From Schwartzia sp. (in: firmicutes) (GTDB lineage Bacteria; Bacillota; Negativicutes; Selenomonadales; Selenomonadaceae), in NCBI GenBank assembly GCA_017458745.1, contig JAFTAB010000094.1:1-36955 (forward strand): DNA of 36,955 nucleotides, read 5' to 3'. The position numbers and the translations under genes are program-made. This document shows, one piece after another, positions 8,078 to 33,306 of the stretch. The stretch's first letter is position 1, and every line of letters starts with the position of its first letter. The notes beneath the pieces were generated by a model. It saw only the letters and a program-made list of their open reading frames with translations. It had not been told where the DNA came from and searched no databases.

Positions 8078-8124
8078 TAAAGGAGACACTGATTAAAGGA
8101 AATAACTGTAAAATCATTCTCGGT

Positions 8125-27542: not shown

Positions 27543-28490
27543 ATGTTTGAAGAAAATCTAATTTGCAAGATGCTAAAAATTAAATACCCGATTTTTCAGG
27601 GCGGCATGGCGTGGCTCGGCACGGCCGAGCTGGCGTCCGCTGTCTCGAATGCGGGAGGTCTCGGCATCATAGGCGCAGGCCATATGCCCCCTGATGTGCT
27701 CCGCGCGGAGATTCAGAAGACTAAGGCGAAGACCGACAAGCCTTTTGGCGTAAACATAATGCTGATGTCTCCTTTCGTCAAGGAGGTCATGCAGGTCGTG
27801 GTCGAGGAGCGCGTGCCTGTAGTGACCACCGGGGCCGGCAATCCCGGCGAGTATATCCCATCTCTCAAGGAGATTGGCACGAAGGTCATACCGGTGGTCG
27901 CGTCTGTCGCGCTCGCAAGGCGTCTCGTGCGCACGGGTGTCGATGCGGTCATCGCGGAGGGCATGGAATCCGGCGGGCACATAGGCGAGCTGACGACGAT
28001 GCCTTTGGTGCCGCAGGTCGTTGACGCGGTCGATGTCCCTGTCATAGCGGCGGGCGGCATAGGCGACGCGCGTGGGTTCGTCGCGGCTTTCGCTCTCGGC
28101 GCGAGCGCGGTGCAGATGGGCTCGCGTTTCGTGCTGTCCAAGGAATGTATAGCGCATGAGAATTACAAGAATCTTGTGCTGAAGGCTCGTGACCGCTCGA
28201 CGGTCATCACGGGACGCGCGACGGGGCATCCTGCCCGCGTGCTTCAGAACAAGCTGTCGCGCCATTATCTTGACCGCGAGAGCCATGGCGCGTCGATTGA
28301 CGAGCTGGAGAAGCTCGGCCTGGGGACGCTGCGCTTGGCGGCTCGTGAGGGCGACGTGGAGAACGGCTCCGTTATGATCGGCCAAATCTCAGGTATGCTC
28401 TCGGACATTGAGTCGGTTGATGAGATTATTCAGGGCATTGTCAGCAAGGTCGGGCCGACTATTGAGTCAATAAATAACAATTTGAAATAA
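27543..28490 (+). CDS. fabK: Enoyl-[acyl-carrier-protein] reductase (FMN), FabK type
   Basis: FabK is a flavin enzyme that reduces enoyl-ACP with NAD(P)H in the last step of each fatty-acid elongation round, replacing FabI. The 315-residue TIM-barrel protein starts LKIKYPIFQGGMAWLGTAELASAVSNAGG. It has AEGMESGGHIGELTT, with the His expected near the flavin, and the FMN phosphate segment AAGGIGDARGFVAAFALGA followed by VQMGSRF. I take the ATG after GAGG; an ATG four codons earlier has a poorer site. Position just before fabD and fabG supports the FabK call over nitronate monooxygenase. Confidence 0.93.
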   Translation: MFEENLICKMLKIKYPIFQGGMAWLGTAELASAVSNAGGLGIIGAGHMPPDVLRAEIQKTKAKTDKPFGVNIMLMSPFVKEVMQVVVEERVPVVTTGAGNPGEYIPSLKEIGTKVIPVVASVALARRLVRTGVDAVIAEGMESGGHIGELTTMPLVPQVVDAVDVPVIAAGGIGDARGFVAAFALGASAVQMGSRFVLSKECIAHENYKNLVLKARDRSTVITGRATGHPARVLQNKLSRHYLDRESHGASIDELEKLGLGTLRLAAREGDVENGSVMIGQISGMLSDIESVDEIIQGIVSKVGPTIESINNNLK

Positions 28491-30474: not shown

Positions 30475-30714
30475 ATGTCTGATACTTTTGCAAAAGTTCG
30501 TGACATCGTGGTTGAGCAGCTTGGCGTTGAGGCCGATGAGGTAACGATTGATTCTACGTTTATTGATGATCTGGGAGCCGATTCACTTGATATTGTTGAG
30601 CTCATCATGGCTTTCGAGGAAGAGTTTGGCATCGAGATACCTGATGAGGCAGCAGAGAAGATTAAGACAGTTCAGGATGTTGTGACTTACATTGACCAGA
30701 ACCAGAGCAAATAA
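30475..30714 (+). CDS. acpP: Acyl carrier protein
   Basis: A 79-residue acidic carrier that holds growing acyl chains on a phosphopantetheine arm. The attachment serine is Ser37 in [10 protein letters not shown]. Length and composition are standard. A strong GGAGGGAGGTG site precedes the ATG, fitting the high level of ACP expected. It has its own promoter. Codon use is less GC-rich than in its neighbours, as is common for very highly expressed genes; that reading is inference. Confidence 0.98.
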
Positions 30715-30766: not shown

Positions 30767-30916
30767 GGAAACACTGATTATCTCATGGTCGCCTTGACGG
30801 AGTTTTTTCGCATGGCTGCGTTAATGCTCGCGCATAGAAACTCTATGCTTCTTCGCATTGCCTTGCCGCGCGGTAAATATCTCGTCAATTCTTCCATCCA
30901 ATTAATCAGTGTTTCC
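30767..30916. repeat. Inverted-repeat element, family 2, 150 bp
   Basis: The perfect 14-bp ends are GGAAACACTGATTA (30767-30780) and TAATCAGTGTTTCC (30903-30916). The interior is non-coding with small hairpins (CATAG/CTATG near 30835). The right end with CTTAC matches the right end of the element at 31927-31989. This looks like a MITE-type element. Confidence 0.7.
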
Positions 30917-30974
30917 TTACTTTGAAGATTATCGGCTTTTCGCCGTTCATATATTTCCGAATGGAGGAATAGGC

Positions 30975-31922
30975 TTGAATCTCCCGGAACTAAGGATAGG
31001 AAAGAAAACAGCAAAAGTGCCTATAGTGCAGGGCGGCATGGCGATAAGGCTCTCGACGGCGAGGCTCGCGTCCGCTGTCGCGAACGAGGGCGGCATCGGC
31101 CTCATAGCGGCATCGGGAATGACAAATGACGAGCTGCGCTATGAGATACGCTTGGCTCGCTCGCTTTCCCCTAATGGCGTTATAGGAATAAACATAATGG
31201 TCGCGGCGAGGAAATTCGCCGAGATAGTAAAGACAGCGATAGACGAGGGAATAGATCTCGTGGTGGCGGGCGCGGGATTCTCGCGCGACATGTTCGGCCT
31301 CGGCAAGGAGTCGGGGACTCCGATCGTGCCTATCGTCTCCTCGGTGAAGCTAGCAAAGATTTCGGAGAAGCTTGGCGCAACGGCTATCGTCGTGGAGGGC
31401 AAGGAAGCGGGAGGCCATCTTGGCACAACCACATCTGTCCGTGACCTCATACCCGACATACGCGCAGCCGTGAAGATTCCTGTCATTGCCGCAGGCGGCG
31501 TGCTGCACGGCCAGGACATCATCGACATACTCAGAATGGGCGCAAACGGAGTGCAGATGGGTTCGCGTTTCGCGTCGAGCAAAGAGGCAAACAGTGCCCC
31601 CATGCTCAAGGAATATTATCTGAAGTCGAAGCCTGAGGACATTGTGGTTATCCATAGCCCCGTTGGACTGCCCGGCCGCGCGGTCAGGAATCCTTTCGCC
31701 GAGAGGATAATGGCGGGGCCTGTGCCGCCGACTGTCTGCGATAACTGCCTTAAGGCTTGCAAGCATAATTTTTGCATTATCCGCTCGCTTATCAGAGCGC
31801 AGCAGGGCGATGTGGACACAGGGCTGGTATTCACCGGCGAGTACATATCGCATATAAAAAAGATTTTATCGGTAAAAGAGATATTCAAGTATCTGCTTGA
31901 TGAAGTTGCGGCAGTAAAATGA
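30975..31922 (+). CDS. FabK-like flavin oxidoreductase (nitronate monooxygenase family)
   Basis: A 315-residue TIM-barrel flavoprotein paralogous to FabK at 27543. It has VPIVQGGMAIRLSTARLASAVANEGG, EGKEAGGHLG (His near the flavin), VIAAGGVLHGQDI and VQMGSRF. It differs from FabK by a late cysteine cluster C-X2-C-X3-C-X4-C (CDNCLKACKHNFC, about residues 255-267), which could bind metal or an iron-sulfur cluster. I take TTG 30975 as the start because GGAGG lies seven bases upstream; a longer in-frame start at 30909 would begin inside the family 2 repeat. Its place between acpP and fabF suggests a role on acyl chains, but detoxifying nitronates is equally possible. Confidence 0.8.
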   Translation: MNLPELRIGKKTAKVPIVQGGMAIRLSTARLASAVANEGGIGLIAASGMTNDELRYEIRLARSLSPNGVIGINIMVAARKFAEIVKTAIDEGIDLVVAGAGFSRDMFGLGKESGTPIVPIVSSVKLAKISEKLGATAIVVEGKEAGGHLGTTTSVRDLIPDIRAAVKIPVIAAGGVLHGQDIIDILRMGANGVQMGSRFASSKEANSAPMLKEYYLKSKPEDIVVIHSPVGLPGRAVRNPFAERIMAGPVPPTVCDNCLKACKHNFCIIRSLIRAQQGDVDTGLVFTGEYISHIKKILSVKEIFKYLLDEVAAVK

Positions 31923-32055: not shown

Positions 32056-33306
32056 TTGAAAAATCGTGTTGTGATTACAGGGATTGGAGTCGTGTCGCCA
32101 ATCGGAATAGGAAAAGATAATTTTTGGAATGCTCTCGTCGAGGGCAAGAACGGCATCGACAGGATAACGCGCTTTGACCCGACGAATTACGCCTGCAAGA
32201 TAGCGGGCGAGGTGCAGGACTTCAACCCGACTGACTTCATAGACAAGAAAGAGACAAAGCGCATGGATCGCTATGCCCAGTTTTCGCTGGCGGCGTCAAA
32301 GCTGGCAATAGAGGACGCGGGGCTCGACCTCGCAAAGGAGAATCCTGATCGCATCGGCACTTATATCGGCGCGGGCATTGGCGGCATCGAGACCATGCAC
32401 TCGCAGTATGAGAAACTTTTCGCAAAGGGCCCGCATTTTATCAGTCCATTTTTCATACCGATGATGATAGCGAACATGGCGGCGGCTCATGTGTCGATTG
32501 CGTTCGGGCTGCATGGCCCGTCGAGTTGCAATGTGACGGCGTGCGCGACCGGCTCCAACTGCATCGGCGACGCGATGCGCCTGCTTCAGGGTGGCTACGC
32601 CGACGTGATGCTGGCGGGCGGCTCGGAGTCGTCCATTTCCGAGGCGGCGGTCGCGGGATTCACGCAGATGAAGGCGCTCTGCGTGGATCACAATGACGAT
32701 CCGGCTCATGCGTCGCGTCCTTTCGCGAAGGGAAGGAGCGGCTTCATTATGGGCGAGGGATCGGGCATCGTCATTCTGGAGACTTTGGAGCACGCCGAGA
32801 AGCGCGGCGCCCACGTCTACGCGGAGCTGGCCGGCTACGGCTCAAATGCCGACGCGTATCACATCACGAGCCCTGCGCCTCACGGCGAGTATCAGGCAAA
32901 GTGCATGCAGCTCGCCATTGCTGATGCGGGGCTGACGCCTGACGATATCGACTATGTCAACGCGCATGGCACGTCGACGCAGATGAATGACCTCGGCGAG
33001 ACGGAGGCATGCAAGACGGTGTTCGGCGCGAGGGCGAAGGACGTGCCCGTGAGCTCGATAAAGTCGATGACTGGGCATCTGCTCGGAGCCGCCGGAGGAG
33101 CGGAGTGCATCGCGACGACGCTGGCGGTGGTGAATGACATCCTGCCGCCGACTATAAACTATGATGAGCCTGATTTGGAGGAAGGGCTCGACCTCGACTA
33201 TGTGCCTAATAAGTCAAGGGCGCACAAATTGAGGGCGGCCATCTCGAATAACTTCGGGTTCGGTGGACACAACGCTTGCCTCGTAGTAAAGAAATTCACG
33301 AAATGA
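32056..33306 (+). CDS. fabF: 3-oxoacyl-[acyl-carrier-protein] synthase II
   Basis: FabF condenses malonyl-ACP with acyl-ACP to lengthen the chain. The 416-residue thiolase-fold enzyme has the active Cys in VTACATGSNCIGDA, the first His in NAHGTSTQMND, and KSMTGHLLGAAGG with the Lys and second His. The end NNFGFGGHNA is typical. I start at TTG, giving MKNRVVITGIGVVSP, because GAGGTG lies six bases before it; the GTG at 32047 would sit inside that ribosome site. The gene continues into rnc after ten bases. Confidence 0.96.
   Translation: MKNRVVITGIGVVSPIGIGKDNFWNALVEGKNGIDRITRFDPTNYACKIAGEVQDFNPTDFIDKKETKRMDRYAQFSLAASKLAIEDAGLDLAKENPDRIGTYIGAGIGGIETMHSQYEKLFAKGPHFISPFFIPMMIANMAAAHVSIAFGLHGPSSCNVTACATGSNCIGDAMRLLQGGYADVMLAGGSESSISEAAVAGFTQMKALCVDHNDDPAHASRPFAKGRSGFIMGEGSGIVILETLEHAEKRGAHVYAELAGYGSNADAYHITSPAPHGEYQAKCMQLAIADAGLTPDDIDYVNAHGTSTQMNDLGETEACKTVFGARAKDVPVSSIKSMTGHLLGAAGGAECIATTLAVVNDILPPTINYDEPDLEEGLDLDYVPNKSRAHKLRAAISNNFGFGGHNACLVVKKFTK

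What the first reader, a model, noticed from the sequence alone, without database searches (positions are those of the whole stretch)
30975..31922. Second FabK-like flavoprotein with a cysteine cluster inside the fatty-acid cluster
The gene between acpP and fabF is a FabK paralogue but carries C-X2-C-X3-C-X4-C near its C terminus, absent from the FabK at 27543. It could be a different acyl-chain reductase or isomerase (for unsaturated fatty acids, since no FabA/FabM gene is seen here) or a nitronate monooxygenase.
Basis: partly seen in the sequence, partly recalled or inferred. Interest (0 to 1): 0.52.

Follow-up and report, generated by a model that had tools for sequence, protein, structure and literature searches.

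The report
FabX-like unsaturated fatty acid enzyme
This gene, sitting inside a fatty-acid gene cluster and usually labelled a nitronate monooxygenase, belongs to the same protein branch as the Helicobacter pylori enzyme FabX, and most likely puts the double bond into membrane fatty acids in bacteria that live without oxygen.

Summary
Window 30975-31922 (+, TTG start, 315 aa) lies between acpP and fabF. Its only four cysteines form C-X2-C-X3-C-X4-C (C255/258/262/267), absent from the FabK at 27543. The protein is neither FabK nor NMO. It falls in one fully supported branch with H. pylori FabX and keeps FabX's four [4Fe-4S] cysteines, catalytic His182, its partner Ser273 and FMN-contact Phe339. 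It is compact, with shorter cysteine spacing and without the helix-7 stretch holding FabX Arg164. Fifty of 50 good-quality related genomes carry it; 14 of them have no FabM-type family, one FabA/FabZ-family gene and no desaturase. The branch is widespread: 152 of 299 Bacillota genomes and 20 of 20 Clostridium-group genomes, whose double-bond enzyme was 'novel and unknown' in 2009. Most likely it makes cis-3-enoyl-ACP for unsaturated fatty acids; in anaerobes probably as an isomerase of trans-2-enoyl-ACP, since H. pylori FabX needs O2 (inferred). The general idea is not new: UfaA (2011) and FabX (2016, 2021) are known. Function is untested here.

The parts
30975..31922 (+). fabX-like gene (315 aa), compact lineage of the FabX/UfaA-type branch of the NMO/FabK superfamily
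30963..30967 (+). GGAGG ribosome-binding site for the TTG start at 30975
   Evidence: sequence
31416..31418 (+). codon of His148, equivalent of FabX catalytic His182
   Evidence: 62 of 62 FabX-like, 17 of 17 FabK
31656..31664 (+). codons of S228-P229-V230 (FabX S273-P274-V275; S273 hydrogen-bonds His182); S in 62 of 62 FabX-like, 0 of 17 FabK
   Evidence: PMC8626469 section 8
31737..31775 (+). cysteine cluster C255, C258, C262, C267, equivalents of FabX C300, C304, C308, C320 that hold the [4Fe-4S] cluster
31830..31838 (+). F286-T287-G288, equivalent of the FMN-contacting F339-T340-G341 of FabX; F in 62 of 62 FabX-like, 0 of 17 FabK
27543..28490 (+). fabK, the ordinary enoyl-ACP reductase of the cluster (no cysteine cluster)
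30475..30714 (+). acpP, upstream neighbour; proposed carrier of the substrate
   Evidence: named by sequence
32056..33306 (+). fabF, downstream neighbour; proposed elongating enzyme for the cis-3 product (a Clostridium FabF does this job in E. coli, PMC2700279)

Best explanation
It is a compact member of the FabX/UfaA-type branch: an FMN flavoprotein whose four C-terminal cysteines hold a [4Fe-4S] cluster, and which makes cis-3-enoyl-ACP so that FabF can elongate it to unsaturated fatty acids. Shown by sequence: the branch, the conserved catalytic and cluster residues, the FAS-II operon. Inferred: cluster, flavin and activity. Mechanism I think most likely: it binds FabZ's trans-2-enoyl-ACP, His148 abstracts a proton next to FMN, and a kinked tunnel lets the chain settle as cis-3-enoyl-ACP; the net reaction is redox-neutral and needs no O2. 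The less likely variant (about 1 in 3) is FabX-style dehydrogenation of saturated acyl-ACP with an unknown anaerobic electron acceptor. From the double-bond positions in Selenomonas and Selenobaculum (C18:1 and C16:1 omega-9, C17:1 and C15:1 omega-8) I infer C11-C12 substrates rather than the C10 preferred by H. pylori FabX.
For: One branch with H. pylori FabX against FabK and NMO: support 100/100 (69 rows, careful); 100 SH-aLRT with the whole cysteine domain removed (82 rows). FabX heads the PDB list for the C-terminal third: 4e-11 against 0.002 for the best FabK. At 14 of the 17 FabX-diagnostic positions that the H. pylori fragment covers, window protein and H. pylori FabX have the same letter; the four C, S273 and F339 are in 62 of 62 FabX-like and 0 of 17 FabK rows; FabX K152 (ACP contact) is K or R in 62 of 62, A in 16 of 17 FabK. 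Context: acpP-[X]-fabF in 25 of 59 compact-class loci, fab genes within about 5 kb in 9 of 38 loci of the C-X7-C class; the widely recurring neighbours were FAS-II genes, the rest of that operon (rnc, a radical-SAM-like gene, smc; named by sequence) and a common ABC-transporter ATPase at scattered places; Ilyobacter has it next to fabK. Need: 14 of 50 good relatives have no ECH-family protein, all 14 have one FabA/FabZ-family gene and this gene; 0 of 60 have a desaturase. The window genome's FabZ lies with lpxC- and lpxA-like genes (named by sequence) and passes the FabZ, not the FabA, cut-off. Selenomonas and Selenobaculum, obligate anaerobes, have about 38-47% C15:1 to C18:1 (my sums from tables); G052, whose contig length 2,679,003 equals the published Selenobaculum genome, carries the gene. 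Among 299 Bacillota, 2 of 14 genomes with a desaturase have the FabX-like gene against 150 of 285 without (not corrected for kinship).
Against: No activity, flavin or iron was measured. Full-length phmmer ranks FabK (164 bits) above FabX (147), and structure comparison ties FabK and FabX (Z 39 and 38). FabX's helix-7 stretch with R164, whose mutation cut activity about 80-fold, is missing here, and T130 is R. Identity to H. pylori FabX is only about a third. FabX needs O2 in H. pylori. FabZ may itself have isomerase ability, which sequence cannot tell (PMC2700279). The predicted model is poor exactly at the cysteines (pLDDT under 50).
Confidence: 0.82

Rival explanations
1. Nitronate monooxygenase that detoxifies alkyl nitronates, as databases label it.
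For: Pfam NMO model 188 bits; plasmid relatives are annotated nitronate monooxygenase.
Against: The Pfam model covers FabK too (253 bits for the window FabK); the protein lies outside the NMO rows; O2-dependent nitronate oxidation makes little sense in strict anaerobes; it is conserved in an acpP-fabF gap and has four cysteines that the NMO rows lack.
Confidence: 0.04
2. A second enoyl-ACP reductase, for instance specialised for unsaturated intermediates.
For: FabK superfamily; same operon as fabK; overexpression of Fusobacterium FabX partly offset a FabK inhibitor (PMC11091888, passages).
Against: Outside the FabK rows in the trees; NCBIfam FabK cut-off missed by 248 bits; [quoted passage not shown]
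Confidence: 0.08
3. FabX-style acyl-ACP dehydrogenase/isomerase in the strict sense, with an anaerobic electron acceptor (ferredoxin, flavodoxin or another) in place of O2.
For: The four cluster ligands are kept in 100 of 100 FabX-like ORFs, which an isomerase need not have; N. gonorrhoeae UfaA works anaerobically with an unknown acceptor (stated in PMC11300592, passages).
Against: No redox-partner gene recurs among the neighbours in 95 of 100 loci that could be examined; backtracking next to an active FabK would be a futile cycle (inference).
Confidence: 0.33
4. Unsaturated fatty acids in this group come from a bifunctional FabZ (FabN/FabQ type) and the FabX-like protein does something else.
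For: Isomerase ability of FabZ cannot be read from sequence (PMC2700279 passages).
Against: C. acetobutylicum FabZ lacks isomerase activity (PMC2700279), and 20 of 20 sampled members of its group have the FabX-like gene.
Confidence: 0.08

Closest known systems
Helicobacter pylori FabX (HP0773; PDB 7e1q, 9lt5)
   Same: One branch with full support; four cysteines, His182, Ser273, Phe339, FMN contacts N99, E175, Q240 and ACP contact K152 conserved.
   Different: About a third identical; 315 against 363 residues; C-X2-C-X3-C-X4-C against C-X3-C-X3-C-X11-C; no helix-7 stretch with R164; inferred anaerobic owner with FabK, where H. pylori is a microaerophile without FabK (PMC8626469).
Neisseria gonorrhoeae UfaA (NGO1024; Isabella and Clark 2011)
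   Same: Superfamily; needed for anaerobic unsaturated fatty acid synthesis; the paper's title points to anaerobes lacking FabA (title seen as a reference; the paper is not held, its abstract is recalled).
   Different: Its sequence could not be fetched, so the relation was not tested directly; a Caballeronia protein that may be of that type (L334) falls in the FabX branch.
Fusobacterium nucleatum C4N14_08920 (FabX homologue, PMC11091888)
   Same: FabX-type protein with the key cysteines in a bacterium that also has FabK (passages).
   Different: 50.8% identical to H. pylori FabX, so of the long kind.
FabK (PDB 7l00, 5gvh, 2z6i)
   Same: Fold, catalytic His; neighbouring gene in this operon.
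   Different: No cysteine cluster, no Ser273 or Phe339 equivalents, separate rows in the tree.
Streptococcal FabM, enterococcal FabN, E. coli FabA
   Same: Proposed job (cis-3-enoyl-ACP).
   Different: Other protein families (recalled; family assignment as used).

Membership tests
FabX/UfaA-type branch | common descent apart from FabK and NMO | tested here: met
   (100/100 with all columns; 100 SH-aLRT without the cysteine domain)
FabX/UfaA-type branch | four cysteine ligands of a [4Fe-4S] cluster at the C terminus | tested here: met
   (residues; the metal itself was not tested)
FabX/UfaA-type branch | catalytic His182 with Ser273 and FMN contacts | tested here: met
H. pylori FabX, strict sense | ACP-docking R164 with T130 | tested here: not met
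   R164 falls in a gap and T130 is R104; 32 of 62 FabX-like rows have a gap at R164
H. pylori FabX, strict sense | acyl-ACP dehydrogenase/isomerase activity with O2 as acceptor | not testable with these tools
   needs purified protein
UfaA of N. gonorrhoeae | orthology to NGO1024 | not tested
FabK (TIGR03151) | score over the curated cut-off (453 bits) | tested here: not met
   205.5 bits
nitronate monooxygenase | grouping with NMO rows | tested here: not met
   only plasmid-borne proteins annotated NMO were in the trees, PA1024 itself was not

The most novel reading that the evidence does not exclude
The compact and C-X7-C lineages are the long-missing double-bond enzymes of strictly anaerobic Bacillota (Negativicutes, Clostridium and others), working as O2-independent, redox-neutral flavin/Fe-S isomerases of trans-2-enoyl-ACP, with chain-length choice (C12/C11 in Selenomonas relatives) set by the lineage; O2-dependent backtracking by H. 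pylori FabX would then be a later specialisation.
Probability: 0.4. Interest if true: 0.7.

Novelty: new variant of a known kind. Interest (0 to 1): 0.45.

Why it matters
In 2009 the enzyme that makes the double bond in clostridia was still 'novel and unknown' (PMC2700279). A FabX-type gene in all 20 sampled Clostridium-group genomes, C. beijerinckii among them, and in a whole class of related anaerobes names one gene per organism to test. It also bears on FabX as a drug target: the FabX papers call homologues rare in human-associated bacteria (PMC8626469, PMC12079444); PMC8626469 counted at over 50% identity, whereas at lower identity the branch is common in Bacillota.

Tried and rejected
Rejected: nitronate monooxygenase and second FabK (see rivals). 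FabM: the one ECH-family gene of the window genome (cut by a contig end) is nearest generic enoyl-CoA hydratase models, with FabM 24 bits below the best, and 14 of 50 good relatives have no ECH gene at all. True FabM (over its cut-off) was found in 1 of 299 Bacillota, G345, which has no FabX-like match; too few for a claim.

In some searches two rows (L141, L145) were labelled without motif; my pattern wanted I, L, V, M or A after the last cysteine; they have all four cysteines followed by T, so the compact class counts 59, not 57. Two annotated NMO rows with very long branches (Pantoea, Methylosinus) were dropped after the first tree; there the Methylosinus row sat within FabK and the Pantoea row next to the FabX branch, which the tool flagged as unsafe. 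For the last tree I also left out 16 prefixes of near-duplicate rows and added four (69 rows; one search built it but failed at printing). Literature: ten searches in an open-access library only; none listed a paper on FabX-type proteins in Negativicutes or Clostridium, but the UfaA 2011 and FabX 2016 papers are not held.

Full report
What is there. The window is a FAS-II operon: plsX, fabK, fabD, fabG, acpP, the gene of interest (30975-31922), fabF, rnc (names by sequence). The host genome (2.05 Mb draft, 83% complete) is inferred to be a Selenomonas-type Negativicutes: the tool puts G052 in the same class, and the contig of G052 (2,679,003 bases) has exactly the published genome length of Selenobaculum gbiensis (PMC10491768, passages).

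Identity. Against PDB sequences the whole protein matches FabK (164 bits) and FabX (147 bits) about equally and NMOs far less (PA1024 75 bits). The C-terminal third decides: FabX 4e-11, best FabK 0.002. There FabX's C300, C304, C308, C320, which hold its [4Fe-4S] cluster (PMC8626469, abstract, sections 4, 7, 8, 9, 13 and passages), align with C255, C258, C262, C267. The FabX branch (51 rows) stands against 16 FabK and 2 NMO rows with 100/100 support, and with 100 SH-aLRT when everything after residue 220 is removed (63 FabX-like of 82 rows), so the cysteines do not make the grouping. Of residues named in the FabX paper, N99, E175, H182, G220, Q240, S273, F339, G341 and the four cysteines are kept in 62 of 62 FabX-like rows; S273, F339 and the cysteines are in 0 of 17 FabK rows. 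FabX K152 is K or R in all 62. R164 and T130 are not kept in the window protein.

Sub-lineages. Among 100 loci fetched (out of 152 genomes with a match in a sample of 299 Bacillota), spacing falls into three classes: C-X2/3-C-X3-C-X4-C (59, about 315 aa, the window's class), C-X2/3-C-X3-C-X7-C (38, about 360 aa) and C-X3-C-X3-C-X11-C (3, 52-55% identical to the H. pylori fragment). The X7 and X11 classes, H. pylori FabX and cyanobacterial, Bacteroidota, phage and Caballeronia proteins form one supported branch (100/99); the compact class lies outside it. Compact proteins are therefore deep relatives of FabX rather than FabX proper.

Context and need. acpP-[X]-fabF occurs in 25 of 59 compact loci, with two more beside a fab cluster on the other strand; fab genes lie near 9 of 38 X7 loci and 0 of 3 X11 loci (corrected). 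In 10 of 15 class-level loci fetched with flanks a FabK ORF sits about 2 kb upstream. A strong homologue is in 58 of 60 relatives, the two misses being drafts of 76% and 84% completeness, and in 50 of 50 good ones. ECH-family genes are missing in 14 of 50 good genomes; all 14 have a single FabA/FabZ-family gene and none of the 60 has a desaturase. Selenomonas strains have C18:1 omega-9 (12.6-27.1%) and C16:1 omega-9 (6.5-19.3%) (PMC10901824, passages); Selenobaculum C17:1 cis-9 17.6% and C18:1 cis-9 19.5%. So double bonds are made and a dedicated enzyme is otherwise lacking.

Clostridium. All 20 Clostridium-group genomes that I chose from the named hits hold one match of this kind (one genome had a second, weak match that is FabK-like), each with four cysteines in the X7 spacing (20 of 20), among them C. 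beijerinckii HUN142. PMC2700279 (abstract and passages) showed that C. acetobutylicum FabZ lacks isomerase activity while FabF does both elongations, and concluded that the double-bond enzyme was novel and unknown. C. acetobutylicum itself was not among the genomes searched.

Mechanism. FabX dehydrogenates decanoyl-ACP, passes electrons to O2 and lets the trans-2 product isomerise; no other acceptor is known and isomerisation needs no O2 (PMC8626469 discussion). Strict anaerobes with FabK in the same operon have FabZ's trans-2-enoyl-ACP at hand, so a redox-neutral isomerase is the simpler reading. Recalled, not seen here: Goldfine and Bloch's labelling in C. butyricum, where octanoate gave omega-7 and decanoate omega-9 products, also fits a bond set on the freshly elongated enoyl intermediate and not on the saturated chain. 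[quoted passage not shown] Omega-9 and omega-8 products mean a cis-3 bond set at C12 and C11; this is arithmetic on published fatty-acid tables, not a measurement on this enzyme.

Known or new. FabX (2016, 2021), UfaA (2011) and a Fusobacterium FabX homologue (PMC11091888, passages) are known; a Bacteroidales FabX has been expressed (PMC11300592, passages), and a Ralstonia UfaA homologue was discussed (PMC4549310, one passage). What is added is the compact lineage with its shortened cluster spacing and missing docking stretch, its place in the FAS-II operon across a class, the breadth in Bacillota, and the Clostridium candidate. FabX papers describe homologues as rare in human-associated bacteria (PMC8626469 section 4; PMC12079444, passages); PMC8626469 counted at over 50% identity, so the lineages seen here would have escaped. 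Other papers looked at: PMC9260719 (passages, no FabX) and PMC12691678 (passages). The ten searches listed under Tried and rejected found no paper on these lineages, in an open-access library that lacks the 2011 and 2016 papers.

Noticed in passing
L337:2986-4071 (IMGVR_UViG_3300046710_000057, 128.6 kb): A contig listed as viral encodes an X7-class FabX-like protein (36% to the window protein) between two short ORFs that look HNH-like by eye: possible phage-borne gene for unsaturated fatty acids.
   Followed up: partly
L335:1498-2598 and L327:3992-5071: Cyanobacterial plasmids carry FabX-like genes near psbA (and, in Pseudanabaena, beside heme oxygenase), reminiscent of low-oxygen gene clusters (recalled), with a further cysteine spacing (C-X3-C-X3-C-X9-C).
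   Followed up: partly
window 30767-30916: 150-base element with perfect 14-base inverted ends (GGAAACACTGATTA / TAATCAGTGTTTCC) between acpP and the fabX-like gene; similar ends at 8082 and 31973; MITE- or REP-like.
   Followed up: partly
L334:220-1422: Unannotated Caballeronia megaplasmid protein in the FabX branch with a C-X5-C-X3-C-X12-C cluster (spacing by eye), possibly the betaproteobacterial UfaA type.
   Followed up: partly
L325:4995-6942: Ilyobacter polytropus plasmid: compact FabX-like gene, annotated nitronate monooxygenase, directly upstream of fabK.
   Followed up: yes
L141, L145 (G081, G273): Two 6.4-6.8 Mb Bacillota genomes have both a desaturase and a compact FabX-like gene, unlike the other 12 desaturase genomes of the sample; perhaps an O2 route and an anaerobic route side by side.
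   Followed up: no
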